Shown piece by piece: positions 4,331 through 44,640 of a stretch of DNA of 64,000 bases (the stretch's first letter is position 1; every line of letters starts with the position of its first letter). Position numbers and translations under genes: made by a program. The stretch spans positions 1,922,001-1,986,000 of the forward strand of contig NZ_PGEX01000001.1 of NCBI RefSeq assembly GCF_002797675.1, written 5' to 3'. The notes under the pieces are model-generated. The model had not been told where the DNA came from, did not search any database, and saw only the letters and a program-made list of their open reading frames with translations. This stretch comes from Hallerella succinigenes. GTDB taxonomy: Bacteria > Fibrobacterota > Fibrobacteria > Fibrobacterales > Fibrobacteraceae.

Positions 4331-5623
4331 ATGAATTGCACAAAAATTTCTTTGGTGGCAGTACTTGTTTGGGGAACTTCTTTTGCGTTTTCCCAGTCGG
4401 TTGAAATCGGCACGTGGGCGGGCTTTAGAAAAGGCGCGGTTTCCTTTACGTTTGACGACGGACCTAAAAGCGATGTGGAAATTGCCGCTCCGATGTTTGA
4501 AAAGTACGGCTATAGGGCCACGTTCAATATTGTGACCAACTGGGTCGGTGCAAATGGAATGGTCAGCTGGAGCGATGTTCAAACCATGGCAAGCGCAGGC
4601 CATGAAATTGCAAGCCACAGCGAATCGCATCCAGGTAACGGGGCGATGCCGGCGAATGAAATTGCTTCCTCCAAACAGGTGATTTCGAACAACGTTCAGC
4701 AGTCCTATGGCTGCATCACGCTCGCTTATCCGAACTGCAATACTCCTGGCGATCAGCAGGTTTTACACAATTATATTGCGGGTAGAATCTGTAATGCAAG
4801 CTGGAGCGGAGGTTCCGATATCATGGGGCAAAATGGCCCGAGCAATTGGGCTGCCGTCCCTGCGATCATGACGGGGAATCAAGGCTCGGAGGATTTGACG
4901 GGGAACATACAGCGCGCGGTGAATAGCGGTGGCTGGGTCATGTTCCTCACGCATGGGTTCACGACGGGAACAAACGGTTATGCGACCTATTCCCCCACCA
5001 ATGCGACTGTGATGGAAAGCGCGCTGGGATGGGCAAAGCAAAATGACAAGGATGTTTGGGTCGCGCCATTCCGCAACGTGACGATGTATATCAAGGAACG
5101 CAATGCGGCTTTCATCGATCCGATGGACGGTGGAAATGCGGACAGTTATGCTTTTGAATTAAAGCATTCCATTGCGGATAATATTTCAAAATACGATTAC
5201 CCGCTTTCCTTGCGGATGGCACAGCCGACTGGCTGGGAAAACATTCGGGTGATGCAAGAAAATGCCGAACTCGAAGCTTTGATAGCCGATGGCTATATCT
5301 ATTTTGATGCGGTTCCGAATGCGGGAAAAATCACCATTTCGAATATGGACGCTTTGAGCTCTTCCAGCTCCGCGGAGGAATCCTCTTCGAGTGCAACGAC
5401 GGCTCTTTCGGAAATCCCGAACCATTTCCCGTTTGCGGTTTATGCGGATAACGGTTCCATTGCGGTTTCGGGTGCGCAGGGAATGTCTGTGACGGTGTTC
5501 AATGCTTTGGGAAATAAACTGCGTTCGACGAAGGTTTTGGGCTGTGAACAGAAGGTGTTCTCGGGAGCAAAGGGTTTGTATATCGTGAAGGTGGGCTCCC
5601 ACTCCTTCAAGGTGCGCCTGTAA
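4331..5623 (+). CDS. Secreted polysaccharide deacetylase (NodB homology) with C-terminal surface module
   Basis: Probably removes acetyl groups from xylan or another plant or cell-wall polysaccharide outside the cytoplasm. The N-terminus is a signal peptide (LVAVLVWGTSFAFSQ). The NodB domain shows the catalytic FTFDDGPKSD near residue 40, the SHSESHP metal-binding motif near residue 96 and the LTHGF motif around residue 200. After the catalytic part come a Ser-rich linker (SSSSSAEESSSSA) and a ~65-residue C-terminal module (VTVFNALGNKL, GLYIVKVGSHSFKVRL), as seen on secreted Fibrobacter enzymes. The start is set at ATG 4331 because AGGG at 4321 is 6 nt upstream; ATG 4325 abuts it. Substrate not deducible. 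Confidence 0.85.
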   Translation: MNCTKISLVAVLVWGTSFAFSQSVEIGTWAGFRKGAVSFTFDDGPKSDVEIAAPMFEKYGYRATFNIVTNWVGANGMVSWSDVQTMASAGHEIASHSESHPGNGAMPANEIASSKQVISNNVQQSYGCITLAYPNCNTPGDQQVLHNYIAGRICNASWSGGSDIMGQNGPSNWAAVPAIMTGNQGSEDLTGNIQRAVNSGGWVMFLTHGFTTGTNGYATYSPTNATVMESALGWAKQNDKDVWVAPFRNVTMYIKERNAAFIDPMDGGNADSYAFELKHSIADNISKYDYPLSLRMAQPTGWENIRVMQENAELEALIADGYIYFDAVPNAGKITISNMDALSSSSSAEESSSSATTALSEIPNHFPFAVYADNGSIAVSGAQGMSVTVFNALGNKLRSTKVLGCEQKVFSGAKGLYIVKVGSHSFKVRL

Positions 5624-33016: not shown

Positions 33017-33050
33017 GTTTAATCTTTGATCATAAAGAGCCACTATAAGA
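33017..33050 (+). repeat. 34-bp cassette repeat, divergent copy 1
   Basis: Same 34-bp length as the consensus. The first 14 bases differ, but from ATAA the sequence AGAGCCA + CTATAAG + A is kept, matching copy 2. Confidence 0.65.
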
Positions 33051-33062
33051 CAATGACTGCGT

Positions 33063-33320
33063 TTATCGCCATCGATAGAAATCCCCGTTGATGGTTCTGC
33101 CGTCGATGCGCTGGGCTACATCAAGGTGTGAAACGGGTAAACCGGCTATCTTCTCAAGCCAGGGAACGCCGTGTTCGATGTTGGTGAACGCTTCCCCTTC
33201 TTCCGTCTTTAACAGGCAGAGAACAGCCTGCCGCACTTTCTTTGCGATGTTGCCGATACGGCAGATGTGGTCGCCATCAAGGAAAATGTCGTGGGATTTG
33301 TCAAGGGCCATTTCGTTCAT
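33063..33320 (-). pseudogene. Phage baseplate (Gp46/GPW_gp25-like) protein or fragment
   Basis: 85 residues with HDIFLDGDHICRIGN, KVRQAVLCLLKTEEGEAF and IEHGVPWLEKIAG, matching the pattern of tail baseplate wedge proteins of Mu-like phages (D-I-x-L-D ... A-x-x-I/V-R ... G-E-x-F ... G-V-P-W). No other phage structural gene is nearby, so this is a captured piece rather than part of a prophage. Confidence 0.5.
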
Positions 33321-33336
33321 CAGCCCGTAAACTATT

Positions 33337-33481
33337 ATGGGGAAGCTTACAGCCCTACGTCGGCGTAAAGCCCATGCTCCGCGTGACTAACGAGCAAATT
33401 GAAGACGGCGAATTGTTGGCGAAGCTTCTGGATGCTATGCTCCCGGAACTGCCTGCCGCGAAAGTGAAGAAGAAAAAGTAG
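33337..33481 (+). pseudogene. C-terminal gene tail (KKKK type), copy 1
   Basis: The open frame ending at 33481 reads LQPYVGVKPMLRVTN, GELLAKLLDAMLPELP and a Lys-rich end, with no start of its own. A similar tail (LLARPLDAMLPEVP...KKK) ends at 36891. Parent gene not identified. Confidence 0.45.
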
Positions 33482-33492
33482 GGGTGTTTGTT

Positions 33493-34560
33493 CTACGTAG
33501 AAGGAACGATAATCACTCGCCATTCGTTTTCCGACCGCAGGATATACCCCTTGTCGGTCATATTTTTTAACTGTTTTTGAATGGCTGACATGTTGATCCC
33601 GATTTTTTGTTGTAGTTCTCGGTATGTAATGGATGGGTTGTCCAATAGGCTTTCGAGAATTCTTGTCGAGTTCTCGCTGCGGAATGTTATCCGTTCCCCA
33701 TCGTACCACCAAACATCGGGTGAATGCTCCTGAACAAAGCCTATGTTGTATGCGATTTCTTCGGCATAAATTTTCTTGAAATAATTCTTGAATGCCCTGA
33801 TTTGTCGAAGAGTCGCTTGCGCTCCATCAGAAGGGGCGTCGCCGACTTCCAAATCGGATTGGTGTAGAGCGTCAAGGTATTCGTTTTTCTTGCGGCTACG
33901 GACCACTATCATTGGGTAGCCGTGCCTGGCTAGAATGTAGTTGACGAGTAATCGTGCAATTCGTCCGTTTCCATCTTCAAAGGGGTGAATGCGGATATAA
34001 CGGTAATGGAACAAAGCGGCGAGATCGACAGGATTCATTGATTTTGACGATTCCGTTTCGTTGTACCAATCTACAAGGTCAGCCATTAAGGCAGGAGTTT
34101 CTTCTGGGGAAGCGTAGGTGAAAATATCCCCATAACGTGTAATGACGCTGTTCGGACGCGTTTTGTATTGCCCCGCATGAATTGTATATGATGAGTGGTT
34201 CCCGTCGGGAAGAGTGTAATGGACTTGATAGTCTTCTCGAATCAGGGTCCTGTGCAATTGGCGGATGAAATTTTGGGTTAATGGTGAGAATGTGTCCTGC
34301 GATTTTTCTGAAGTCATTTTAAGACAAACTTCGCTGGCCTTCATCTCTTCGCAATCCCTAACCTTCGCGATACCTTCCACCTTGCCAAAAAAGAGCAGCA
34401 GTTCCGTTTGTCCGTATGTTAACGTATTGCCTTCGATATGGTTGCTGTTGTAGTTGAAATCCACCGAAAAACGACGGCTCAGGCGAAATAGGTCGTGCTC
34501 GCTAAGGGGTTGCATTGCCCGCCATTCGGCAAGGGTATTTTCGAGATTTGGGCGCTTCAT
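33493..34560 (-). CDS. Fic-domain protein (AMPylase family)
   Basis: A 355-residue protein likely to transfer AMP to a target protein. The active-site loop is HPFEDGNGRIARLL (His to Arg of HxFx[DE]GNGRxxR intact) near residue 180. An N-terminal inhibitory motif SNHIEGN (S-x3-E-G) near residue 40 makes it a class II, self-inhibited Fic. The C-terminal ~60 residues form a winged helix (NPSITYRELQQKIGINMSAI), common in Fic regulators. Starts at ATG 34560. It stands alone in cassette A of the repeat array. Confidence 0.9.
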   Translation of the reverse strand: MKRPNLENTLAEWRAMQPLSEHDLFRLSRRFSVDFNYNSNHIEGNTLTYGQTELLLFFGKVEGIAKVRDCEEMKASEVCLKMTSEKSQDTFSPLTQNFIRQLHRTLIREDYQVHYTLPDGNHSSYTIHAGQYKTRPNSVITRYGDIFTYASPEETPALMADLVDWYNETESSKSMNPVDLAALFHYRYIRIHPFEDGNGRIARLLVNYILARHGYPMIVVRSRKKNEYLDALHQSDLEVGDAPSDGAQATLRQIRAFKNYFKKIYAEEIAYNIGFVQEHSPDVWWYDGERITFRSENSTRILESLLDNPSITYRELQQKIGINMSAIQKQLKNMTDKGYILRSENEWRVIIVPST

Positions 34561-34585
34561 ACCCTAAATATAACAAAATTTCATT

Positions 34586-34610
34586 AAAAGGTGGTATTGC
34601 ACCACCTTTT
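34586..34610. promoter_or_regulatory. Inverted repeat upstream of Fic gene
   Basis: AAAAGGTGGT-ATTGC-ACCACCTTTT is a perfect 10-bp dyad 26 bp upstream of the Fic ATG. It could be an operator for the Fic protein's winged helix, or a terminator for the plus strand (T-rich tail after CGGCG). Confidence 0.5.
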
Positions 34611-34784
34611 CGGCGTTTTTTTGTGCCAGCGGGGTTGCCGGGTTGATAGCCACTACGATGAGATGCACGGCGACACGCTCGTAATCTTTTTCTATGGCAA
34701 TAGGGAAGATCCGCTTTGCTGAAGTCCGCGAATAGGCTGATGGGATGAAACAGATGTTTCTTGAAAGAAATTATATTGCAGAGA

Positions 34785-35975
34785 ATGAAATTTCTTGTTG
34801 GGATAACTCTTTTCTTGAATGTATGGCTTTGGGCGGGTACGGAAATTCCGTACTCCGTAGAATCTATATCTCAGTTCAAGGAGTATAGAAAAAATTTACT
34901 TGAATTGTTAAAAAATCAGAAAAAAGAAGATGTTGTTTCAATTGTGCAATATGTAAAAGAAAGGGCTCCAGATGAATTTGCAATTGATAACTTGGAACTG
35001 ATCCAAATCTACTTGTTGGTGGAACGTTATGACCTGGCTCTTGATTTGTGGATTGGGGAGTATGAAAAGGTTGGACGGAAAGTGCAATATTCTTTTGTTA
35101 GGGATTCCTTGCTGGATTATCTTGATGCAAATATGAATTTGACAGACTCTAGTGTAGTAAAGAAAAAACTTAAAGAAGTTGTTGTGTCTAACGTTGATGA
35201 AGAACAAAGGGGCTTGTATAAAATCCTGTTGGAAATGACGCCTTTTTACGAAATGCAAAATAAGTTCTATGCAATGCATTATAAAACATGGGATCGTGAG
35301 CAACAAACCTTGGTTTATAAGTTGGCCGTCAAGTATGTGGGTGACTCCTTGGCAAATTCAACTTTTGGTCAATTTGTTTTTGAAAATCGTGTGATTGATA
35401 AATTTTATTATAGAAGTGGAATTAATCCTGAATGCATAGAGAAATTGATTCTATTGCTTAAAGAATTTGAGCGTAATTTCCCAAATTCGGAAAGATTGCC
35501 GTGGATAAAGTATGAACGAAATCGATTTGAAAAATTATTGAAGGATTACTCGGAGTTCTTGAACTATCATAAGAAAAAATTATATACTGGTGGTTTGGGT
35601 ATTGAAGGCTGGTTGACGAATGATGGTTGGGAAATTGGAATCCCGATACAATTTCATCGCTTCTTGTTTATCCCGACTTTAGACTCGGATGAAAAACTTA
35701 ATGATGACGGATGGATATTTATTTTTGGCTTTGACTTGTTTGAAGTAAAGCATTTAAAGATTGTTCCGTTTGTTGGTTTGTGGGACCCTTATGTGGCAGG
35801 AATGCAGATTGAATTTCGTCCCTGGCTCGAAAAGTATCCCGATACAAAATTTGGCGCAGCTGCGTATATATCGCTAAAACTAAAGTATATGATGAAATAT
35901 GGAGAATTGGCAGAAACTGATGAAAAAGGTTTCGCTCATTTGTTTTATGCAGGTCTAGGTTTTCATTTTTGGTAA
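34785..35975 (+). CDS. Exported protein of unknown function
   Basis: A ~396-residue protein with an N-terminal signal peptide (FLVGITLFLNVWLWAG), a helical middle rich in charged residues, and a C-terminal ~120 residues of alternating hydrophobic/aromatic strands (FLFIPTLDSDE, IFIFGFDLFEV, KIVPFVGLWDPYVAG) ending in LFYAGLGFHFW. The terminal aromatic residue and strand pattern suggest an outer-membrane beta structure. ATG 34785 is chosen because it places the signal peptide at the N-terminus. Low G+C. Family not recognised. Confidence 0.65.
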   Translation: MKFLVGITLFLNVWLWAGTEIPYSVESISQFKEYRKNLLELLKNQKKEDVVSIVQYVKERAPDEFAIDNLELIQIYLLVERYDLALDLWIGEYEKVGRKVQYSFVRDSLLDYLDANMNLTDSSVVKKKLKEVVVSNVDEEQRGLYKILLEMTPFYEMQNKFYAMHYKTWDREQQTLVYKLAVKYVGDSLANSTFGQFVFENRVIDKFYYRSGINPECIEKLILLLKEFERNFPNSERLPWIKYERNRFEKLLKDYSEFLNYHKKKLYTGGLGIEGWLTNDGWEIGIPIQFHRFLFIPTLDSDEKLNDDGWIFIFGFDLFEVKHLKIVPFVGLWDPYVAGMQIEFRPWLEKYPDTKFGAAAYISLKLKYMMKYGELAETDEKGFAHLFYAGLGFHFW

Positions 35976-36180
35976 TTTTGGGGTGTTAGGGGCTGTCCCC
36001 CTAGGCGACTTGAGCGAAGTGAAAGTCCAATCTTCCCCCTTTACAGACCGCTCGGCTCTGTCGCATAAAAGAACCTACGAAATCGCCTCGCTTTCGCCAA
36101 CACGACTCGTTAAGACGAGTCGCTTATGGCTCACATTTACAGACCGCTCGGTTGCATTTTGTCTAAGTTCTAAGCTCTAG
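35976..36180. repeat. Non-coding repeat-rich stretch
   Basis: Two direct repeats TTTACAGACCGCTCGG (36040-36055 and 36136-36151) enclose a perfect CGACTCGT-TAAG-ACGAGTCG hairpin (36103-36122). The open frame crossing it encodes a low-complexity Ser/Arg-rich peptide and is not credible as a gene. Confidence 0.55.
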
Positions 36181-36181
36181 G

Positions 36182-36300
36182 TTCTGCCGAGACCGTCGTG
36201 CAGAAGATTCTCGACAGCGTCGAAGTGCCGCAAAATTTAAATGCGGATCGCGATCGTCGCTATGCTAAAGCAGAAGTAATGAGACAAGAAAAAAGTATAT
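36182..36300 (+). pseudogene. MoxR-like ATPase C-terminal tail, copy 1
   Basis: Reads SAETVVQKILDSVEVP and then runs on past the usual end (QNLNADRDRRYAKAEV) to TGA at 36300. SAETVVQKILDSVEVP resembles the extreme C-terminus of MoxR AAA+ ATPases; the rest of the gene is absent. A close second copy ends at 37674. Confidence 0.5.
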
Positions 36301-36415
36301 GAATTTGGCTGGAATCCTTGATTTTATTGGGTTTTCGTGTCTCATTAAACCCGATAAATTTTGTCTTCCTCATTTTGCTGCTTTTTCGCGTTTTCAGCTT
36401 TCGTGAGACAAAAAA

Positions 36416-36436
36416 AACAGGGCTGAAGGCCCTGTT
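36416..36436 (-). terminator. Minus-strand terminator
   Basis: AACAGGGC-TGAA-GCCCTGTT-type hairpin with an A run on its plus-strand left side, i.e. a T run after the stem on the minus strand. It would end transcription of the minus-strand gene remnant at 36551-36750. Confidence 0.7.
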
Positions 36437-36550
36437 GCGATTTGTTTGTGGATTATTGCATGTTTTTTAGATGTTTAGCCAAAAAGGGGAAGGCCGCGAA
36501 TCACTAGTAAAGCCATATCTGTACCTACCTCGTTTTCAATATATATTGTT

Positions 36551-36750
36551 TTATTTTGGAAGTGCGATGTTTACGCTGCGTTGGAGTAACCGTGAAAATT
36601 CTTCTAGTGTGGGAACCTTAAGAACGCCTTTGCCGTAGGGATTCAATATTCTGATTTTAGCGACGCTCGTTCCTAATTTTTTTTGCAGTGATATACTGTT
36701 TGACCATTTCTTTGACCTCGAACGCGTTAAACGGATAGCCGAAACGTTCA
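36551..36750 (-). pseudogene. 3' end of an unknown minus-strand gene, open at the repeat
   Basis: Read on the minus strand from the repeat edge: ERFGYPFNAFEVKEMVKQYI, then after a run of eight A residues (36677-36684) the frame is lost. Removing one A restores KKLGTSVAKIRILNPYG and VPTLEEFSRLLQRSVNIALP to a TAA at 36551-36553. So it is a C-terminal fragment with a poly-A frameshift. Family unknown. Confidence 0.55.
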
Positions 36751-36784
36751 GTTTTACCTCCGCTTATAAAGAGCCACTATAAGT
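36751..36784 (+). repeat. 34-bp cassette repeat, copy 2
   Basis: GTTTTACCTCCG + CTTATAA + AGAGCCA + CTATAAG + T. One core base (A for C) and the last base differ from the consensus. Confidence 0.9.
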
Positions 36785-36825
36785 CTAAAGCTGTGTCGAG
36801 TTCTGAAAAGTTCTGTGACCATGTT

Positions 36826-36891
36826 TTGCTGGCTCGCCCGCTCGATGCGATGTTACCGGAAGTGCCTGCACCAAAAGCGAAGAAGAAGTAA
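36826..36891 (+). pseudogene. C-terminal gene tail (KKK type), copy 2
   Basis: LLARPLDAMLPEVPAPKAKKK ends at TAA 36889-36891 (given here in one 20-plus pattern as LLARPLDAMLPEVP then APKAKKK). It parallels the tail at 33337-33481 (LLAKLLDAMLPELP). No start; parent gene unidentified. Confidence 0.45.
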
Positions 36892-36942
36892 GTCCTGACG
36901 AACGCACCTATCAACGGGGTGAGCGCCGGTTGCACCGAGTTT

Positions 36943-37239
36943 TTATTTTTCAAACAAGTCCGAGTGCGTTCCTGTGCGGACAAGTTCTAATATCAACACG
37001 TTGTCTTGCTTTCGGTAAATCAAGAGCCAATCCGGCTTTATGTGAAGTTCCCGATGCTCGGACCAATTGCCTCCAAGAGCATGATCCCGATACTTGTCTT
37101 CAAGAGGTTCGTCATTTGCGAGCTTTGAAACAACGGCGTACAATTCCTTCATATCGTAATTCCGTTTCTTTGCTCGTTTGACATCTTTCTTGTATTGTGA
37201 TGTCCATAGGATTTTGTATCTAGGTCCTTTCTCTACCAA
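36943..37239 (-). CDS. yafQ: YafQ-family mRNA interferase toxin
   Basis: A 98-residue RelE-superfamily toxin that would cleave mRNA on the ribosome. Diagnostic stretches: YKILWTSQYKKDVKRAKKRN, YRDHALGGNWSEHRELHI (the conserved His/Arg region) and KPDWLLIYRKQDN. Its start overlaps the antitoxin stop by 7 bp, so the two are translationally coupled. It is the downstream gene of a minus-strand pair within cassette B. Confidence 0.9.
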   Translation of the reverse strand: MVEKGPRYKILWTSQYKKDVKRAKKRNYDMKELYAVVSKLANDEPLEDKYRDHALGGNWSEHRELHIKPDWLLIYRKQDNVLILELVRTGTHSDLFEK

Positions 37240-37514
37240 GATTTCATCTCCCGAATGGCTTCGTTGACCGTATACGTCTTCATCTTCGAGGGGTTCTTCT
37301 GGTATTTCGCGTAAATTTCATCTGACTCTTCCATCGCCTTGATGGTTTTCCGATTCGGACGATTGATGGAAATTTCAAAAGGGATTCTCCCTTCGCGTAG
37401 AACTTGCTTGGTAAATACGTTGTACAGCCCCGAGATGGTTATTCCCACCTTTTCGCAAAAATCGGCGATGCCTTTTTTGTCGTCGTCGTCCAGTGTTATC
37501 GTCAAATTTGCCAT
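37233..37514 (-). CDS. dinJ: DinJ/RelB-family antitoxin
   Basis: A 93-residue ribbon-helix-helix antitoxin: ANLTITLDDDDKKGIADFCE is the DNA-binding strand and first helix, GLYNVFTKQVLREGRIPFEI the second half, and the C-terminal IYAKYQKNPSKMKTYTVNEA the toxin-binding part. AGAGGGC precedes the ATG. It probably represses its own promoter in the A+T-rich stretch 37515-37580, which contains TATA-rich dyads. Confidence 0.9.
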   Translation of the reverse strand: MANLTITLDDDDKKGIADFCEKVGITISGLYNVFTKQVLREGRIPFEISINRPNRKTIKAMEESDEIYAKYQKNPSKMKTYTVNEAIREMKSW

Positions 37515-37596
37515 TGTGCCCTCTTTGAAATGAGTGAAATCTATATGAAATATATATAAAAATCACATAAAATTCAGTGTTTTATAGTTGTGTTTT

Positions 37597-37674
37597 ACAG
37601 GAGAACATGCTGCAGAAGGAGTCTCTGCCGAAACTGTCGTGCAGAAGATTCTCGATAGCGTCGAAGTGCCGTAA
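37597..37674 (+). pseudogene. MoxR-like ATPase C-terminal tail, copy 2
   Basis: GEHAAEGVSAETVVQKIL and DSVEVP end at TAA 37672-37674. This matches the last residues of MoxR AAA+ ATPases and copy 1 at 36182. The fragment starts abruptly after a GTTTTAC heptamer. Confidence 0.5.
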
Positions 37675-37712
37675 AATTTAAACGCGGATCGCGAGCGTCG
37701 CGGGATCACCTT

Positions 37713-38303
37713 TTACACAAGCCGGGCCTTAAGCTCGGCTTTCACTTTTTTGAGGTCGCTGCAAGTGAGGACGGGAATGAGATTGTTGATTTCTTCGATA
37801 CTCTTGTCCCACCACTTGAACTTGAGCATGATGTCGATGAGTTCGTCGTCGAATCGCTTGCGGATGAGTTTGGCGGGGTTACCTGCCACGATGGTATAGG
37901 GCGTGACGTCGCTTGCTACGACAGAATTTGCCCCGATGATGGCGCCGTCTCCGATGTGGACGCCTGGGAGAATCGTCACATTCTGCCCGATCCATACGTC
38001 GTTACCGATGACGGCATCGCCTTTGAGCGGAAGGTCGCTCTGGGTCGGGGCGGGCTGCTCCCATGTGCCGAAGATGTAGAACGGGTAAGTGGTGGCTGCG
38101 TTCATCTGGTGGTTAGCCCCGTTCATCACGAATTCCACGCCGGCGGCAATCTGGCAGAACTTGCCGATGATGAGCTTGTCGCCGATAAAGTCGTAATGGT
38201 GGGTGACGTGCCGCTCAAAGTCCTTGTCGGCAAAGTAGGTGAAATCGCCCACAATGATGTTTTTGTTTTTGACATCGGGCTTGACGAAGGTCAAAGCCTC
38301 CAC
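37713..38303 (-). CDS. Xenobiotic (Vat/CatB-type) O-acetyltransferase, N-terminus uncertain
   Basis: A left-handed beta-helix (hexapeptide) acetyltransferase of the group that inactivates streptogramin A or chloramphenicol. Motifs: NIIVGDFTYFADKDFERHV, KLIIGKFCQIAAGVEFVMNG, ANHQMNAATTYPF (active-site His), GNDVWIGQNVTILPGVHIGD and VVASDVTPYTIVAGNPAKLI. The frame stays open and conserved upstream of GTG 38303 (TPDPNVIQPIANVE) but no ATG/GTG/TTG precedes it, so the true start was lost or is an unusual codon. Could still be made from GTG 38303, shortened. Native substrate unknown. Confidence 0.8.
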   Translation of the reverse strand: MEALTFVKPDVKNKNIIVGDFTYFADKDFERHVTHHYDFIGDKLIIGKFCQIAAGVEFVMNGANHQMNAATTYPFYIFGTWEQPAPTQSDLPLKGDAVIGNDVWIGQNVTILPGVHIGDGAIIGANSVVASDVTPYTIVAGNPAKLIRKRFDDELIDIMLKFKWWDKSIEEINNLIPVLTCSDLKKVKAELKARLV

Positions 38304-38384
38304 GTTGGCGATAGGCTGGATGACGTTTGGGTCGGGAGTCTTTGCTGGTATGGAAGGAATATAGATTAATTTTCGAATTTTATG

Positions 38385-38437
38385 TTAGCAGCGCCTTGAT
38401 GTAGGCCTGCACCTGCTTGACGGAGAGAGGGGGTGCT
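38385..38437 (-). pseudogene. C-terminal gene scrap open at the repeat
   Basis: The minus strand reads APPLSVKQVQAYIKALLT then TAA (38385-38387), running out of repeat copy 3 with no start. Family unknown. Confidence 0.35.
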
Positions 38438-38471
38438 GTCTTCCCTCGGCTTATAAAGAATCTCTATAAGA
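38438..38471 (+). repeat. 34-bp cassette repeat, divergent copy 3
   Basis: GTCTTCCCTCGG + CTTATAA + AGAATCT + CTATAAG + A. Arms are perfect; the spacer and left part have drifted. Confidence 0.75.
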
Positions 38472-38670
38472 TTCATCTTGGAAACACATATGTCGAAGTG
38501 CCTGGAGACGATGCTTAGTAACCATTTCAACCGTCTACTGATGCAACCAAATGGAATGATAAATACAGTTCTTCGTTGAACAAAAAAAGAAAATTTTCAT
38601 ACAAGTTAAAAATTTTTACTATATTTAAGGTAACGATTTAGGGTGATGGAAACATCCCTAGACACTACTT

Positions 38671-38735
38671 AAGAACTCTGACTAAAATAACTCTTCAGTT
38701 TCCACAAATTATTTTTAAATAATTGGAGAGTTCTT
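38671..38735 (+). promoter_or_regulatory. Ribosome-site-sequestering leader of the peptide gene
   Basis: AAGAACTCT (38671-38679) and AGAGTTCTT (38727-38735) form a 9-bp long-range stem that masks the GGAGAG. Between them, AAATTATTT and AAATAATT can form an inner A/T stem. A promoter-like TACTATATTT lies at about 38615-38625. Confidence 0.5.
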
Positions 38736-38736
38736 T

Positions 38737-38799
38737 ATGCTAAAAGTCATAATTAACATCATTCAAATTATCTGCGACATACTCGTGATAATTCTTTAA
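38737..38799 (+). CDS. Short hydrophobic peptide, probable type I toxin
   Basis: A 20-residue peptide starting MLKVIINIIQ and ending LVIIL, almost entirely Ile/Leu/Val with single Lys, Asp, Cys: a membrane peptide like the Ibs, Fst or TisB group of type I toxins. GGAGAG sits 6 nt before the ATG. The 5' leader contains AAGAACTCT at 38671-38679, a perfect complement of AGAGTTCTT at 38727-38735 that covers the ribosome site, so translation is probably RNA-controlled. A terminator follows directly. It is the only gene in its 364-bp cassette. No antisense RNA can be proven from sequence alone. Confidence 0.55.
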   Translation: MLKVIINIIQIICDILVIIL

Positions 38800-38808
38800 C
38801 CTAATTGG

Positions 38809-38834
38809 GGTACGGATTCAACCGTACCTCTTTT
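38809..38834 (+). terminator. Terminator of the peptide gene
   Basis: GGTACGG-ATTCA(A)-CCGTACC with TCTTTT after it, ending one base before repeat copy 4. Confidence 0.8.
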
Positions 38835-38835
38835 A

Positions 38836-38869
38836 GTTTTACCTCCGCTTATAAAGAGCCCCTATAAGA
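38836..38869 (+). repeat. 34-bp cassette repeat, copy 4 (consensus)
   Basis: GTTTTACCTCCG + CTTATAA + AGAGCCC + CTATAAG + A. The two 7-bp arms are inverted (one mismatch) around a 7-bp spacer. Confidence 0.95.
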
Positions 38870-39427
38870 TTCTAAAGTAATCGTAGATTTCCGTAAGCGT
38901 CGCCACGGTACTTCTCGGGCTCTTCGAAGCGCTTCCCTGATCGATTGCAATCGCAGGCGAAAGTCCGCGGATAAAGTCCACCGATCCGCGATCCGGACGT
39001 CCGAGGAAACGGCGCGCATACGTGCTGAGCGTTTCCACAAATCGGCGCTGTCCTTCCGCAAAAAGCGTGTGGAAAGCAAGGCTCGATTTTCCAGAACCGG
39101 AAACACCCGAAATCACCGTCAACTGATGACGCGGAATCGTCACGCTAAAGTTTTTCAAATTGTGCTTCCGCGCGCCGACGATCTGAATATCCAAGCAGTC
39201 CGCCACTTCTTTTTTACGAGCGATGGACTTCGCTTCTTCTGTTTTCGGTGAAAGGACTTTCGCAAGGAATTTCCCCGTCAAAGACTTCGGATTTTTCGCT
39301 ACTTCTTCGGGGGAACCTGTTGCGATAATTTCACCGCCGTTCACGCCCGCATCCGGGCCAAGGTCAATAATCCAGTCCGCGCATTTGATCACGTCCATAT
39401 TGTGTTCGATGATCACCATGCTGTTGC
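38870..39427 (-). pseudogene. uvrA: UvrA fragment spanning a tandem-UvrA junction
   Basis: The whole cassette is one open minus-strand frame without start or stop. It reads [41 protein letters not shown] (C-terminal end of a UvrA unit), then [39 protein letters not shown] (Walker A), [10 protein letters not shown] and [20 protein letters not shown] (N-terminal end of another unit). Such an order occurs where two UvrA copies are fused head to tail, as in double-length UvrA proteins. It is bounded exactly by repeat copies 4 and 5. Confidence 0.88.
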
Positions 39428-39461
39428 GTTTTACCTCCGCTTATAAAGAGCCCCTATAAGA
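39428..39461 (+). repeat. 34-bp cassette repeat, copy 5 (consensus)
   Basis: Matches the consensus of copy 4 through CTATAAGA. Confidence 0.95.
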
Positions 39462-39573
39462 TAAAGGAGTTTTGAAAGTTTTTTTAAAAATTTTGAAAAG
39501 TACTTGACAATGTTTTTTTTGTTTACATTCCTTTATGCGAGGCATTCTCGTTCAAATAACAAAAGGAGTAACT

Positions 39574-39909
39574 ATGGATTTTACTTGTAAGAAATGTGGA
39601 ATCGGAAATTATACATCTCTTTCCAGTTTGGTGAATTGCTCTTGCCCTAAAGGCGGCAATCATGAACCTTATGAAGGTCGCGATTGCGGTAACAACTGGA
39701 CTTGTAAGAAATGTGGAATCGGAAATTATACATCTCTTTCCAGTTTGGTGAATTGCTCTTGCCCTAAAGGTGGCTATCATGAACCTTATGAAGGTCGCGA
39801 TTGCGGTAACAACTGGACTTGTAAGAAATGCGGAATCGGAAATTATACATCTCTTTCCAGTTTGGTGAATTGCTCTTGTCCTAAAGGTGGCGATCACGAA
39901 CCGTTTTAA
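39574..39909 (+). CDS. Triple zinc-ribbon repeat protein
   Basis: A 111-residue protein made of three nearly identical 39-residue units, each TCKKCGIGNYTSLSSLVNCS + CPKGG-x-HEPYEGRDCGNNW; the third stops at HEPF. Each unit has C-x2-C ... C-x-C ... H, a compact zinc-binding pattern. At DNA level the unit is a 117-bp tandem repeat (starts at 39583, 39700, 39817) with only a few base changes, so it has expanded recently or is kept uniform. ATG 39574 has AAAGGAG upstream; TTGACA lies at 39504. The next gene follows at 15 bp. Nucleic-acid or protein binding is a guess. Confidence 0.75.
   Translation: MDFTCKKCGIGNYTSLSSLVNCSCPKGGNHEPYEGRDCGNNWTCKKCGIGNYTSLSSLVNCSCPKGGYHEPYEGRDCGNNWTCKKCGIGNYTSLSSLVNCSCPKGGDHEPF
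39583..39906 (+). repeat. 117-bp tandem repeat, 2.8 copies
   Basis: Copies begin at 39583, 39700 and 39817 and differ at a handful of positions (for example GGCAAT, GGCTAT, GGCGAT before the His codon). Confidence 0.95.
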
Positions 39910-39924
39910 CAGGGACTTGACATT

Positions 39925-40572
39925 ATGTTTTCCATCGCTAATGTTTCCGAGTTGTTCAAGGATGCACAATATGTGAATTTTTATCCGTTCGTGGGTGAAA
40001 ATTATTTTTCTGCGCCACATAAAATCCTTGTCTTGGGCGAGTCTCATTATGGCCCGAAAACGATAAATTCGAATCATGATTTTACGAATTGGATTGTCGG
40101 TGAAGATTACCTTTTGCCTAAAATAGATGGCAAGGGCTTTCCAGGTTATACACGGTGTTTTGATAACACTGCGCGTGTTCTTGCGGAATGTTGTAACAGT
40201 GACTCTTACAAGGTGTATCGCGAGATTGCTTTCTATAACTATTTCCAGGAAACAGTCGGCGAAGGCCACCATCGTTCTAAGGCTTTTCTGACTTCAGAAT
40301 TGGTTGAAAAATCAAGAAAGGCTTTAGGCGAAGTTTTGGAAACTCTAAAGCCAGATTTGGTTGTTGGCTGGGGATATAGTAGACTGGAATGGGAATGGCT
40401 CCCTCACGACCGTAAACAAATTTGGCAGGTTCCAGGGAAATTGCACTTGTTTACGATTGATGAATATTTGCCAGTACCATTTTGGTGCATGAAACATCCG
40501 TCAAACTTTTTCCCCGTTGGCTTGCATCGGGAACTTTATGGGCTTATAAAAGAACATCTTTGGGGTAAATAG
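39925..40572 (+). CDS. Uracil-DNA-glycosylase-superfamily-like protein (tentative)
   Basis: A 215-residue protein. HKILVLGESHYGPKTINSN near residue 32 and PFWCMKHPSNFFPVGLHREL near the C-terminus resemble the first and last motifs of the UDG fold (GxxP/GES... and HPS), and KPDLVVGWGYSRLEW gives a central strand. The canonical catalytic motifs are not exact, so glycosylase activity is unproven. It shares an operon with the zinc-ribbon protein, suggesting a two-gene unit acting on nucleic acid. Ends in a clear terminator. Confidence 0.5.
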   Translation: MFSIANVSELFKDAQYVNFYPFVGENYFSAPHKILVLGESHYGPKTINSNHDFTNWIVGEDYLLPKIDGKGFPGYTRCFDNTARVLAECCNSDSYKVYREIAFYNYFQETVGEGHHRSKAFLTSELVEKSRKALGEVLETLKPDLVVGWGYSRLEWEWLPHDRKQIWQVPGKLHLFTIDEYLPVPFWCMKHPSNFFPVGLHRELYGLIKEHLWGK

Positions 40573-40596
40573 AAAGCCGAGATTCTTCTCGGCTTT
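40573..40596 (+). terminator. Terminator of the zinc-ribbon operon
   Basis: AAAGCCGAGA-TTCT-TCTCGGCTTT with a T run; follows the stop codon directly. Confidence 0.88.
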
Positions 40597-40666
40597 TCTT
40601 ATGAAAAAAATGAAGTTTTGGCTAAATATTTCAACAGATGAACGCTGTTTAGCTCATATACAAATT

Positions 40667-42037
40667 GGTAGTGTCAAGGGTTTTTCGCAAAAATAGTTTG
40701 TCCCAACATCAGATCTAGGCTACATTTCCGTCCTTTTCCTGTTCCCGTTTCAGCTCGTTCTCCTTTTCCATCTCGTAAAGATGCTTCATGTTCAGGTATC
40801 TCTTGGTACCCCATTCCTTCGTGGCGATATGCCTTAGCCTAGCGCACACAAGCATCAGGGCAGATTCCCCGTCCGGGAAGCAACCCACAACCCGAGTCCT
40901 TCTGCGTATCTCCCGGTTCAGGCGTTCCAGGATGTTGTTCGTCCTTATGCTGCGCCAGTGTTCGTGCGGGAAGTCGAGATAGGTCAGCGTCTCCATCACG
41001 CCCTTGCGGTAAAGGTCTGCGGCGGATTTTAGCCCCATATCGCGCAGTTTCTGTTCTACGTCGGCAACCTTTTTCAGTGTCGCCTCCTTGTCTTCCTGGG
41101 CGTACGTAGCCTTCAGCAGGGGCATGGCCGAAGCGAGCTTGTTGCGAGGGATCTTTGTCATCAGGTTCCTGAAAAAATGCACCATGCAGCGTTGCCATTT
41201 CGCATCCGGGAACACTTCCGAGGCCGATTCCAGGAAGCCCAGGTGTTTGTCCGATGTGAACAGCCGGACGCCATTCAGGCCACGTTCCCTGAGGCTTACG
41301 AGGAAGCTACGCCAGCATTCCTTGCTTTCGCTTGCGCCCTCGCATGCTCCGAGTATCTCCCGGTAGCCGTCTTCGGACACCCCTATCGCGACAAGTACCG
41401 AGACGCTGGTCATTTCGCCGCCCCAGCTGCGCTTCAGGTAGATGCCGTCAACGAACACGTAGGGGTATTCCCCGCCTATGGCCCTGTTTCGCCATTCCTC
41501 GATCTTGCCGTATACCTTCTGGTTCAGGTTGCTGACGGTCGAGGCGCTGACCCGAGAGCCCCACAGGAGCTCCGTGACGTCTTCCACGCGGCGCACGGAT
41601 ACTCCCGCCAGGTACATCTCGATGAGAGACTCCTCCACGGACGATTCCCTGCGTCTGTAGCGCTCGATGATGGCGGTCTCGAACGGGGCCAGGCGCAGCT
41701 TGGGTACGGACAGGTCGACCTCTCCGGCGGAAGTCAGAAGCTTGCGGTGGTAATGACCGCTGCGGTAGTTCCTGCGCTCGTCAGTCCGCTCATGCCTTTC
41801 CGCGTTGCACAGCTCCGCGGCTTCCTCGTCCAGCATCGTGTTGAGGGTTTCCTCGATGGTCTTTCTAATGACTCCTTTCAGGTCGTTCTTGAGGCCTTCT
41901 TCGTCGATTTTGATTATATTGTTGTCCATAGGATGGTCCTTTTTAGGTTGATTTGTGATTATTTCAAATCTAAAAATTGGAACATCCTATTTTTTTTACT
42001 CCCTTAGAGGAATTTGCGAAAGAAAATATACGTTACC
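40667..42037 (-). mobile_element. IS256-family element
   Basis: A 1371-bp element with an 8-bp target duplication TACAAATT at 40659-40666 and 42038-42045. Terminal bases GGTA and an inner TTTCGCAAA are repeated in inverted orientation at both ends. Confidence 0.92.
40715..41929 (-). CDS. IS256-family (Mutator-type) transposase
   Basis: A 404-residue transposase. Mutator-type landmarks: AELCNAERHERTDERRNYRS near the N-terminus; PYVFVDGIYLKRSWGGEMTS (first Asp); GVRLFTSDKHLGFLESASEV (second Asp); KWQRCMVHFFRNLM; and the Glu in NNILERLNREIRRRTRVVG. Appears intact. Confidence 0.95.
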   Translation of the reverse strand: MDNNIIKIDEEGLKNDLKGVIRKTIEETLNTMLDEEAAELCNAERHERTDERRNYRSGHYHRKLLTSAGEVDLSVPKLRLAPFETAIIERYRRRESSVEESLIEMYLAGVSVRRVEDVTELLWGSRVSASTVSNLNQKVYGKIEEWRNRAIGGEYPYVFVDGIYLKRSWGGEMTSVSVLVAIGVSEDGYREILGACEGASESKECWRSFLVSLRERGLNGVRLFTSDKHLGFLESASEVFPDAKWQRCMVHFFRNLMTKIPRNKLASAMPLLKATYAQEDKEATLKKVADVEQKLRDMGLKSAADLYRKGVMETLTYLDFPHEHWRSIRTNNILERLNREIRRRTRVVGCFPDGESALMLVCARLRHIATKEWGTKRYLNMKHLYEMEKENELKREQEKDGNVA

Positions 42038-42206
42038 TACAAATTCAAGGCGTGTTCCCAGATGAGATTGTTGTTGATTTGTTTTTCTACTAAACCAATA
42101 AATGTTATGATGGCGTTCAGATAATCTATTGTAGCTGGAACGCACTCATTTTGTGATTGGGTAAGTTCGGAAAGAAGTTTTTCATACTCATCTTCAACGT
42201 TTGAGT

Positions 42207-42240
42207 TTTACCTCCGCTTATAAAGAGCCCCTATAAGATT
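42207..42240 (+). repeat. 34-bp cassette repeat, copy 6 (consensus)
   Basis: Matches the consensus of copy 4. Confidence 0.95.
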
Positions 42241-42489
42241 CAATGTGACCGCAGGCCGTGATGCACAGGCAAAAACTTACATCGAAACCCTCGATAAAAT
42301 TTTTGACCACGATCATCTGTATCTTTCGATTTGCGATAACGGAATTTCCGCTCAAAAAACGCTCAACCTGTTTACCGTTGCACTCGCGAAGGAATTGAAC
42401 CGCGAACTCGTCGCGGTCGGCGACGTGCACTACATTAAGCGGGAAGACGCCGACGCTCACAAGGCTCTCCGTTGCATTTCGCTCGTTGG
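42241..42489 (+). pseudogene. dnaE: DnaE (DNA polymerase III alpha) PHP-domain fragment
   Basis: The whole 249-bp cassette is one open plus-strand frame without start or stop: ETLDKIFDHDHLYLSICDNG, LNLFTVALAKELNRELVAVG and DVHYIKREDADAHKALRCIS. This is the internal PHP-domain region of the replicative polymerase (compare L-x-L-x-D-x-G ... NDVHYL-x-x-ED-x-x-AHD). It is bounded exactly by repeat copies 6 and 7. Confidence 0.88.
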
Positions 42490-42523
42490 TTTTACCTCCG
42501 CTTATAAAGAGCCCCTATAAGAT
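42490..42523 (+). repeat. 34-bp cassette repeat, copy 7 (consensus)
   Basis: Matches the consensus of copy 4. Confidence 0.95.
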
Positions 42524-42624
42524 TCAATCGCCTAAAACACGCTAAAAGACGCTTAAAAAGGACTAAAGAGGAATCCGACTTTTCTCAGTGGAAAAATGTA
42601 TATTGGTGATATGTAGGTTTGATT

Positions 42625-42858
42625 ATGGAACTTGTAGAAAACATAAAGGAAAAATTTTCATTTTACAAGGAAAATGACACGGACAAGATGTATCGCGTCG
42701 ATTTTCCGGATATGGACGGTTGGCTAGCTGTTTCATTTGACAAAAAAAAAGTTCTATTTCTCTATAAGGATTATCCCCAGAATTTTTCGAAGGAAGAAAA
42801 GGCTATCTTTGAAAAAGAAGAACCTTTCTGGGCCTCATTTTTTAATAACGGTCGATAA
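42625..42858 (+). CDS. Small orphan protein of cassette G
   Basis: 77 residues: MELVENIKEKFSFYKENDTD, YRVDFPDMDGWLAVSFDKKK, then an acidic-aromatic end (EKEEPFWASFFNNGR). ATG 42625 is chosen; its leader GATATGTAGGTTTGATTATGG is nearly shared with the gene at 43684. Family unknown; small cassette-borne proteins of this kind are often anti-phage or toxin-related, but nothing proves that here. Confidence 0.55.
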   Translation: MELVENIKEKFSFYKENDTDKMYRVDFPDMDGWLAVSFDKKKVLFLYKDYPQNFSKEEKAIFEKEEPFWASFFNNGR

Positions 42859-43128
42859 TCATTTTACATCACCATCGATACCTTTCATCTGATTTTCGGG
42901 ACGAGTGTTAATAAATCCCATCATTTTTTGAAATTCATAGTTATTCGCTATAGTTTCTATATTCGCCAGATACGCTTGCTGTTCTAATTTAATACCATAA
43001 GTGCTCATTGTTTTTTGACAACCAAAACGTTCCTTTAAGAAACGATCTGAAATTGTAAATGTCTTAAAGCCATTATTCTCCGGTATACGTCTTTGCAACT
43101 CCAAATACTCTACGATACCGCTCCTTTT
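42859..43128 (-). pseudogene. 3' end of a minus-strand gene, open at the repeat
   Basis: From repeat copy 8 the minus strand reads KRSGIVEYLELQRRIPENNG, FKTFTISDRFLKERFGCQKT, then IETIANNYEFQKMMGFINT and a stop at 42859, convergent with and abutting the 77-residue ORF. Internal TTG codons could start it, but the open frame into the repeat suggests a truncated gene. Family unknown. Confidence 0.5.
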
Positions 43129-43162
43129 GTTTTACCTCCGCTTATAAAGAGCCCCTATAAGA
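43129..43162 (+). repeat. 34-bp cassette repeat, copy 8 (consensus)
   Basis: Matches the consensus of copy 4. Confidence 0.95.
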
Positions 43163-43269
43163 TACATTACGGAATACTCACGTGGACACATACGCACCAC
43201 TGCCACCTGTCTAGGGACTGGGTCGCGTGTTGTACGAAACAGTCAAAGGAATCGAAGTGGAGGTCACCC

Positions 43270-43656
43270 ATGCTGGTAGCCGTGGAAAAGCCCCGTACGC
43301 GAAACACTGAGGCCGTCTCGTTCAAGGTCGAAGGCGAACGAATCCCGGAATGGCTTCTGGGGATAGTCCGCGAAGTTTACCCGACAGCGAAGGTTGAGGA
43401 CGGCGACGATAGAATCGAGATATCGAGCACAGACTGGTACAAGGACATGGAATCCAGGGACACTCCGGCAAGGACGCTAAAGATCATGCGGACCGCCGCT
43501 GGACTCACGCAGAAGGATTTGGCAAAGAAATTGGGGATTGCGTTCCAGAACTACAACCCGCTTGAACGCGGAACGCGCCCAATCACCATGCAGATGGCGA
43601 TGAGGCTTGCGGATGCCCTTGGCACGTCCTACGAGATGTTCTACAAGGAAAAATAA
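43270..43656 (+). CDS. XRE-family transcriptional regulator / antitoxin-like
   Basis: A 128-residue protein. The C-terminal ~60 residues are a Cro/CI helix-turn-helix: LKIMRTAAGLTQKDLAKKLG, IAFQNYNPLERGTRPITMQM, AMRLADALGTSYEMFYKEK. The N-terminal half (VSFKVEGERIPEWLLGIVRE) resembles N-terminal parts of HigA/MqsA-like antitoxins. GGAGG is 6-8 nt before ATG 43270. A 27-codon frame starting at GTG 43227 overlaps its start and could be a leader peptide or small partner, but is weak. Confidence 0.75.
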   Translation: MLVAVEKPRTRNTEAVSFKVEGERIPEWLLGIVREVYPTAKVEDGDDRIEISSTDWYKDMESRDTPARTLKIMRTAAGLTQKDLAKKLGIAFQNYNPLERGTRPITMQMAMRLADALGTSYEMFYKEK

Positions 43657-43683
43657 CCTATATTCGGATATGGAGGTTTGATT

Positions 43684-43953
43684 GTGGCTGAACAGAAAAA
43701 AGAATTCTTCTGGAAATACGAAAGTGTCCTTGACCACGACATAACTCCGGAACAGTTCAAGGCTATTACAGGATGTAGCTGGGAAAGGCGCTTCGAATAC
43801 CTCCAAATCGTCGTCAATAGCCCCTATGCTGGAGCATCTGACATTTGCCTTTTGTATGGTGGCCGATATGGAAGGCCTAGAAACGAGAATGTATGCAATA
43901 AGTATTCGGCACTAGCAGCTAAAGCACCTATGGTGATGGATTACTGCTACTAA
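43684..43953 (+). CDS. Small orphan protein of cassette H
   Basis: 89 residues: AEQKKEFFWKYESVLDHDIT, PEQFKAITGCSWERRFEYLQ, IVVNSPYAGASDICLLYGGR. GTG 43684 follows GGAGG by 7 nt. It starts 27 bp after the XRE gene, so the two may form a unit. Its TAA (43951-43953) is the last codon before repeat copy 9. Family unknown. Confidence 0.6.
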   Translation: MAEQKKEFFWKYESVLDHDITPEQFKAITGCSWERRFEYLQIVVNSPYAGASDICLLYGGRYGRPRNENVCNKYSALAAKAPMVMDYCY

Positions 43954-43987
43954 GTTTTACCTCGTATCGTAAAGAGCCCCTATAAGA
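43954..43987 (+). repeat. 34-bp cassette repeat, variant copy 9
   Basis: GTTTTACCTCGT + ATCGTAA + AGAGCCC + CTATAAG + A. The left arm is changed (ATCGTAA for CTTATAA) while the spacer and right arm are intact. Confidence 0.9.
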
Positions 43988-44013
43988 CATATATTCAGAA
44001 AAGGAGGACGATT

Positions 44014-44205
44014 ATGCCTGCTGAATTTACACCAAGTCCGGAATTCCTGAAGTTACTCGCACTCGTTGACGAGTGGTCTACGCACGATAAGGAATACATC
44101 TGGGAAAGCTCCCTGAAGGATGGAGCACCTCAATATGTGCACGAAGCTTTAAAAGATCTTGTCAATATTCAAAAGGAACTAGACAAGGAAGGAAGCTGCA
44201 TCTAG
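44014..44205 (+). CDS. Small orphan protein of cassette I
   Basis: 63 residues, acidic: MPAEFTPSPEFLKLLALVDE, WSTHDKEYIWESSLKDGAPQ, then VHEALKDLVNIQKELDK. AAAGGAGG precedes the ATG. Family unknown. Its stop overlaps the stop of the convergent fragment on the other strand. Confidence 0.55.
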   Translation: MPAEFTPSPEFLKLLALVDEWSTHDKEYIWESSLKDGAPQYVHEALKDLVNIQKELDKEGSCI

Positions 44206-44286
44206 ATTCCTAGTGGCTTGGCTCGCTCCGTCACAATCTTGTAGACCTGCTTCGACATGTTCTGCGCACGGCTCCTGTTCACGAAA
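44202..44286 (-). pseudogene. C-terminal gene scrap open at the repeat
   Basis: From repeat copy 10 the minus strand reads FVNRSRAQNMSKQVYKIVTE then RAKPLGI and TAG (44202-44204). No start; protein-like composition; family unknown. Confidence 0.45.
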
Positions 44287-44320
44287 GTTTTACCTCCGCT
44301 TATAAAGAGCCCCTATAAGA
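44287..44320 (+). repeat. 34-bp cassette repeat, copy 10 (consensus)
   Basis: Matches the consensus of copy 4. It is the last copy noticed. Confidence 0.95.
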
Positions 44321-44339
44321 TCTACTTTCTGAATAAACC

Positions 44340-44640
44340 TTATTTTATGCGGGTTCGCAAGCGATTTGACGTTGAAAAAATCAGAAAAATTGGATGAAAT
44401 TCTGGGATTTGGGCCATTTTTTCGGAGCCCTGGTGCTGCCGAAATGGCTGTAGATTTCCAGGAACTCCCTGTCCGTGACGCTCAGCAGGCAGACTGTGGA
44501 GCGGGTCTCGATTAAATTGGCGATTCGGTGCCGTTGCAGCCCGCAGGAGCGTGTAGCCGTAATTCAAAAAGTCGTTGGGGTGTTTGTATTTCCCTGCTCG
44601 TGTCCGACATTCTGCTTGGGGCAAAGCACCGCTTGTGAAC
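44340..44640 (-). pseudogene. Gene scraps including a cas1-like piece
   Basis: On the minus strand, AGKYKHPNDFLNYGYTLLRA followed by ATA (about 44529-44596) closely resembles the conserved region of Cas1 integrases (N-x2-LNYGY-x-LLRA). It then passes into another frame reading RIANLIETRSTVCLLSVTDR and EFLEIYSHFGSTRAPKKW of unknown origin, ending near 44390. Neither piece has a start. No CRISPR array or other cas gene is near. Confidence 0.4.

What the first reader, a model, noticed from the sequence alone, without database searches (positions are those of the whole stretch)
38472..38835. Single-gene cassette encoding a probable type I toxin with a self-masking leader
The 364-bp cassette contains one 20-residue, nearly all Ile/Leu/Val peptide with a good ribosome site, a leader whose AAGAACTCT (38671) is perfectly complementary to AGAGTTCTT over that site (38727), a promoter-like region and a terminator ending one base before the next repeat. 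These are the features of type I toxin mRNAs. A toxin cassette would stabilise the array, as toxin-antitoxin cassettes do in chromosomal integrons. DinJ-YafQ in the neighbouring cassette fits the same idea.
Basis: partly seen in the sequence, partly recalled or inferred. Interest (0 to 1): 0.7.

Follow-up and report, generated by a model that had tools for sequence, protein, structure and literature searches.

The report
Silenced membrane-peptide cassette, probable type I-like toxin
One unit of a swappable gene array in a Fibrobacteraceae chromosome encodes a 20-residue membrane peptide whose messenger RNA seems built to hide its own start signal, as in bacterial 'type I' toxins; it has no known relative, and neither toxicity nor an antitoxin RNA has been shown.

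Summary
Cassette 38473-38835 carries one 20-codon ORF (38737-38799, MLKVIINIIQIICDILVIIL) with a good ribosome site, a promoter core shared with other Fibrobacteraceae loci, and an intrinsic terminator just before the next repeat. The ORF is not chance: 0 of 20,000 shuffles gave one as hydrophobic with a ribosome site, and the peptide is strongly amphipathic (permutation p = 0.0015), with K3, N7, Q10 and D14 on one 60-degree face. Folding adds a second, mutually exclusive anti-Shine-Dalgarno segment (38689-38700 with 38721-38732); the two together occur in 3 of 5,000 shuffled leaders, and the site is more occluded than in any of 24 genes of the same genome. The unit is a true mobile cassette: a relative with 96-97% identical flanks holds entirely different cassettes between the same repeats. 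Missing: an antitoxin (no antisense promoter beyond chance), any homologue (168 phylum genomes, phages, plasmids, family libraries), and toxicity data. Best reading: a membrane peptide silenced by its mRNA that works like a type I toxin (0.5). It would be new to this phylum, but is not proven to be a type I toxin-antitoxin system.

The parts
38450..38472 (+). distal (first) cassette site of the part of the array that turns over; variant CTTATAAAGAATCTCTATAAGAT
   Evidence: identity with relative G089:C64 ends exactly at 38472
38473..38835 (+). the cassette (363 bp between repeats)
38614..38627 (+). promoter core TTTTTACTATATTT (-10 TATATT 38620-38625); transcription start inferred near 38632
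   Evidence: same core recurs in other Fibrobacteraceae loci; TATATTT enriched upstream of genes; start site not measured
38637..38662 (+). 5' hairpin (UUUAGGG..GAUGGAAACAUC..CCUAGA)
   Evidence: MFE
38671..38679 (+). anti-SD A (AAGAACTCT), pairs with 38727-38735
   Evidence: duplex -11.7 kcal/mol
38689..38700 (+). anti-SD B (AACTCTTCAGTT), pairs with 38721-38732 (12 pairs); exclusive with A
   Evidence: duplex -13.4 kcal/mol
38723..38730 (+). Shine-Dalgarno TTGGAGAG
   Evidence: mean unpaired probability 0.009
38737..38799 (+). 20-codon ORF MLKVIINIIQIICDILVIIL, amphipathic hydrophobic peptide
38807..38834 (+). intrinsic terminator
38836..38870 (+). next cassette site (35 bp, GTTTTACCTCCGCTTATAAAGAGCCCCTATAAGAT)
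44286..44390 (+). conserved closing end of the array (attI-like in position): site followed by about 80 bp shared by nearly all arrays

Best explanation
The cassette is a self-contained gene for a 20-residue amphipathic membrane peptide. Its roughly 200-nt transcript runs from a start near 38632 to the terminator at 38834 (inferred). As soon as the ribosome site is transcribed it is paired with one of two upstream anti-SD segments (predicted, supported against shuffles), so the mRNA is silent by default. Release by processing, loss of a partner RNA or stress (inferred, not shown) would allow translation. The peptide inserts into the inner membrane and, through the polar face K3-N7-Q10-D14, assembles and depolarises it (inferred by analogy with IbsC and TisB). 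It therefore works like a type I toxin mRNA carried as one mobile cassette. An antisense or trans antitoxin RNA is expected but was not found.
For: ORF with ribosome site: 0 of 20,000 shuffles, unique in 496 kb of array DNA. Amphipathicity p = 0.0015; amphipathic plus K3-D14 / N7-Q10 symmetry p = 1e-4, post hoc. RNA fold z = -4.5. Two exclusive anti-SDs of near-equal energy; jointly 3 of 5,000 shuffles. SD unpaired 0.009, as low in only 10 of 1,000 shuffled leaders, against a median of 0.32 and a lowest value of 0.013 for 24 genes of the same genome. Own terminator and recurrent promoter core. Precise cassette boundaries and complete cassette turnover at this locus. Precedents: aapA3 mRNA has two mutually exclusive SD-sequestering hairpins (PMC6733600); IbsC is 19 residues and 15 suffice for toxicity (PMC8309996); TisB needs K12 and Q19 (PMC11449926).
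Against: No homologue of peptide, leader or cassette, so no test by conservation or covariation. No antisense promoter above chance (3 weak matches against 2.9 expected) and no antisense terminator-like site. Both anti-SD segments keep the site closed, so no open state is visible in the prediction. Thresholds were set after seeing the sequence.
Confidence: 0.5

Rival explanations
1. A translated but non-toxic small membrane protein (partner or regulator of a membrane complex, or an anti-phage membrane peptide) whose mRNA leader regulates its synthesis.
For: All coding, amphipathicity and leader evidence fits equally. Other arrays hold small membrane-protein cassettes without a strongly masked ribosome site, such as a 43-aa ORF in L168 and a 46-aa ORF in L092.
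Against: A near-fully masked ribosome site is unusual among genes of this genome and is a described hallmark of type I toxin mRNAs (PMC6733600). Conserved small membrane subunits are not usually orphan cassettes.
Confidence: 0.22
2. A non-coding small-RNA cassette (promoter, hairpins, terminator) in which the ORF is accidental.
For: Strong folding and own promoter and terminator. Non-coding RNA cassettes exist in these arrays.
Against: The hydrophobic ORF with ribosome site is beyond shuffles, and the peptide is amphipathic beyond permutations of its own residues.
Confidence: 0.15
3. A decayed or captured DNA fragment with no present function, like the uvrA-like and dnaE-like pieces in neighbouring cassettes.
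For: No homologue found; neighbouring cassettes hold truncated genes (38862-39419 uvrA-like, 42240-42484 dnaE-like by reading).
Against: Promoter, leader, ribosome site, ORF and terminator are all intact and in order within 220 bp.
Confidence: 0.1
4. A regulatory leader (RNA switch or thermosensor) in which the peptide is only a readout or a leader peptide.
For: Two near-isoenergetic alternative pairings at the ribosome site. An 8-codon upstream ORF (38646-38672, METSLDTT) stops at anti-SD A (read from the sequence).
Against: A terminator follows the ORF and no further gene lies downstream in the cassette, so there is nothing else to regulate; no Rfam match. The upstream ORF has a poorly spaced ribosome site.
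Confidence: 0.03

Closest known systems
IbsC/SibC (E. coli type I toxin)
   Same: Almost the same length (19 aa against 20) and near-pure Ile/Leu/Val hydrophobic peptide; small transcript.
   Different: No sequence match to any Pfam or NCBIfam model; polar stripe K-N-Q-D absent from IbsC; no antisense Sib-like RNA found; different phylum.
TisB/IstR-1 (charge-zipper membrane toxin)
   Same: Amphipathic helix with a narrow polar face holding a lysine, a glutamine and an aspartate; K3-D14 and N7-Q10 could pair in an antiparallel dimer as proposed for TisB K12-D22 and Q19 (PMC11449926).
   Different: 9 residues shorter; TisB control uses a leader standby site and IstR-1, not two upstream anti-SDs; no homology.
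AapA3/IsoA3 (Helicobacter pylori)
   Same: Two mutually exclusive anti-SD segments that each hide the toxin ribosome site (PMC6733600).
   Different: In AapA3 aSD1 lies upstream, aSD2 in the ORF, and a third at the 3' end closes the full-length mRNA; here both are in the 5' leader and no 3' anti-SD is evident; no antisense RNA found.
Toxin-antitoxin cassettes of Vibrio cholerae superintegron
   Same: A toxin-like gene as a single mobile cassette in a chromosomal array, with its own promoter.
   Different: Here no antitoxin gene was found; the recombination site is a 35-bp direct repeat, not an attC by reading, and no integrase gene adjoins the array.

Membership tests
Type I toxin-antitoxin system | small (<60 aa) hydrophobic peptide with a membrane helix | tested here: met
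   20 aa, mean Kyte-Doolittle 2.51, amphipathic p = 0.0015; membrane insertion itself not tested
Type I toxin-antitoxin system | toxin mRNA with occluded ribosome site | tested here: met
   predicted only: SD unpaired 0.009; two anti-SDs, joint 3/5,000 shuffles
Type I toxin-antitoxin system | antisense (cis) or trans RNA antitoxin | tested here: inconclusive
   antisense promoter-like matches at chance, no antisense terminator-like site; the one trans match to the start region in the genome lies inside a methyltransferase-like ORF
Type I toxin-antitoxin system | toxicity when expressed without antitoxin | not testable with these tools
   needs expression in a laboratory strain
Described type I toxin families (as modelled in Pfam/NCBIfam) | sequence match to a curated model | tested here: not met
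   0 matches at E <= 10; a 20-aa query has little power
Integron gene cassette | units swapped precisely at repeated sites | tested here: met
   G089:C64 shares flanks at 96.6-97% up to 38472 and from 44286, with unrelated cassettes between
Integron gene cassette | tyrosine integrase gene adjoining the array | tested here: not met
   five PF00589 genes in the genome, none within 100 kb of either array; action in trans not excluded
Integron gene cassette | attC site with RYYYAAC...GTTRRRY ends | tested here: inconclusive
   35-bp site begins GTTTTAY and has only a 6-bp inverted repeat, by reading; no formal attC model was run

The most novel reading that the evidence does not exclude
A type I-like toxin in Fibrobacterota, carried as a single mobile cassette of a recombination system that is not a classical integron, silenced by two redundant 5' anti-SD elements in its own mRNA so that no dedicated antisense antitoxin is needed.
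Probability: 0.2. Interest if true: 0.72.

Novelty: new member of a known kind. Interest (0 to 1): 0.45.

Why it matters
Type I systems had been reported only in Proteobacteria, Firmicutes and Tenericutes until a cyanobacterial case in 2025 (PMC12390103), a limit that paper ascribes to search bias. A confirmed case in Fibrobacterota, found by architecture rather than homology, would widen the range. It would also show that a toxin mRNA can travel as one recombination cassette, and would make array stabilisation by RNA-silenced peptides testable.

Tried and rejected
Homologues of the leader or peptide: blast in own genome, 111 family genomes and 168 phylum genomes gave only promoter-like A+T matches or chance matches inside unrelated sequence. 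Phages and plasmids: none. Rfam: none in the window. A trans antitoxin: the only antisense-sense match to the start region lies inside a methyltransferase-like ORF. The 5' half of the cassette (38473-38600) has no supported ORF and no homologue. The 'closing stem' resemblance between this leader (AAGAACTCT/AGAGTTCTT) and the Mu-type ncRNA cassettes was considered and dropped: the conserved inner motif is absent here, and the RNA model finds nothing in this genome. A dedicated recombinase: the conserved 319-aa tyrosine recombinase (L134) is not tied to array-bearing genomes; counting from the lists, about half of array genomes have a close copy and several complete array genomes lack it.

Full report
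What is there. The stretch 38473-38835 lies between two copies of a 35-bp direct repeat (GTTTTACCTCNGCTYATAAAGAGCCCCTATAAGAY). In order it holds a promoter core TTTTTACTATATTT (38614-38627), a 5' hairpin, a leader, the ribosome site TTGGAGAG, a 20-codon ORF (MLKVIINIIQIICDILVIIL, 38737-38799) and a strong terminator (38807-38834) that stops one base before the next repeat. The promoter core is the only part with matches elsewhere in the family, as expected of a shared promoter motif; TATATTT is enriched upstream of genes here.

Is it chance? In 20,000 dinucleotide shuffles of the cassette, 17 gave a similarly hydrophobic ATG ORF of 16-40 codons and none gave one with a ribosome site; in 496 kb of real array DNA this ORF is the only one to pass. 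The thresholds were set after seeing the ORF, and the locus was picked from 64 kb, so the honest figure is about 0.01 or less rather than 5e-5. K3+D14 = N7+Q10, so an antiparallel dimer would put lysine opposite aspartate and asparagine opposite glutamine; stripe and symmetry together occur in 0.011% of permutations (symmetry noticed post hoc).

The leader. The full transcript folds 4.5 s.d. better than shuffles, though the terminator contributes, and its minimum-energy form uses a different pairing, AACTCTTCAGTT (38689-38700) with AATTGGAGAGTT (38721-38732). The two pairings share the ribosome site and exclude each other; in the leader alone they are equal in energy (-20.3 and -20.4 kcal/mol), and longer transcripts favour the second. 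Shuffled leaders contain a best anti-SD as strong in 168 of 5,000 cases, a second one as strong in 8, and both in 3. The ribosome site is unpaired with probability 0.009; 10 of 1,000 shuffled leaders are as closed, and none of 24 own genes with a ribosome site is (median 0.32, lowest 0.013). A masked start site is thus well supported as a prediction, but there are no relatives in which to look for compensatory changes.

The cassette is mobile. Both breakpoints fall exactly on the repeat, so the cassette content of this locus has been exchanged whole. Other cassettes of the window recur at 99% in a second array of the same genome with at least 20 sites; the peptide cassette does not. It is the cassette farthest from the conserved closing end at 44299-44390; by analogy with integrons that would make it the oldest, which is inference.

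What is missing. No homologue was found in 168 phylum genomes, phages, plasmids, viral contigs, Pfam, NCBIfam or the other cassettes collected (159 distinct in all). A 20-residue query has low power and metagenomes could not be searched. The minus strand has three weak promoter matches against 2.9 expected, one of which (TTGAAT-18-TAGCAT, 38766-38737) would start an RNA antisense to the leader, but it is not distinguishable from chance. No antisense terminator-like site was found.

Reading. The architecture, a short hydrophobic amphipathic peptide with an mRNA closed by alternative anti-SDs and its own promoter and terminator on a mobile cassette, is that of type I toxin genes. AapA3 mRNA has two exclusive SD-hiding hairpins (PMC6733600), IbsC is 19 residues and 15 suffice for toxicity (PMC8309996), and TisB depends on a polar face with K12 and Q19 (PMC11449926). 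I therefore think it most likely works like a type I toxin (0.5), without claiming membership, since the antitoxin was not found and toxicity was not tested. Stabilisation of the array, shown for toxin-antitoxin cassettes in Vibrio (PMC11551772), is an open inference here. Type I systems outside Proteobacteria, Firmicutes and Tenericutes are known only from a 2025 cyanobacterial case (PMC12390103), so confirmation in this phylum would be of interest. The organism is a Fibrobacteraceae genus other than the one that holds most array-bearing genomes; the name Hallerella is my guess and was not tested.

Noticed in passing
window 33029-44390; G000:C1:2048717-2070402; 40 of 111 family genomes: Family-wide cassette arrays with a 35-bp site (GTTTTAYCTCNGCTYATAAAGAGCCCCTATAAGAY), a conserved closing end of about 80 bp, complete cassette turnover between relatives, and no tyrosine recombinase gene nearby; hits in GTDB genomes are nearly all Fibrobacter (one MAG labelled Clostridia). 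The recombinase is unidentified and I found no paper describing the arrays.
   Followed up: partly
L098 (about 5290-5475), L141, L101, L144, L168, L114; L200-L218: An unlisted structured RNA of about 100 nt: closing stem that differs in sequence between copies but keeps pairing, inner hairpins, conserved GAGTWAGYGGAA..CCACTT, own promoter. 18 of 27 pairs show two-sided changes in 5 sequences; no Rfam match; found in 15 family genomes, often beside genes that read like Mu-type prophage morphogenesis genes, and also captured in cassettes. Absent from the window's genome.
   Followed up: partly
window 38862-39419 (-) and 42240-42484: Cassettes that hold truncated pieces of housekeeping-like genes (uvrA-like and dnaE-like by reading), so the array captures fragments as well as whole genes.
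   Followed up: no
window 39583-39933: Three tandem 117-bp copies inside a cassette ORF (cysteine-rich repeat protein, 124 aa), 78-98% identical.
   Followed up: no
L168 cassette (316 bp) and L092 cassette (274 bp): Single-gene cassettes for 43-aa and 46-aa membrane proteins in other Fibrobacter arrays.
   Followed up: partly
window 40656-42043: An insertion sequence (IS256-like transposase by reading) inside a cassette, 98% identical to a copy in a Fibrobacter genome (L090).
   Followed up: no
window 38646-38672: Eight-codon upstream ORF (METSLDTT) whose stop codon touches anti-SD A; ribosome site poorly spaced, significance unknown.
   Followed up: no
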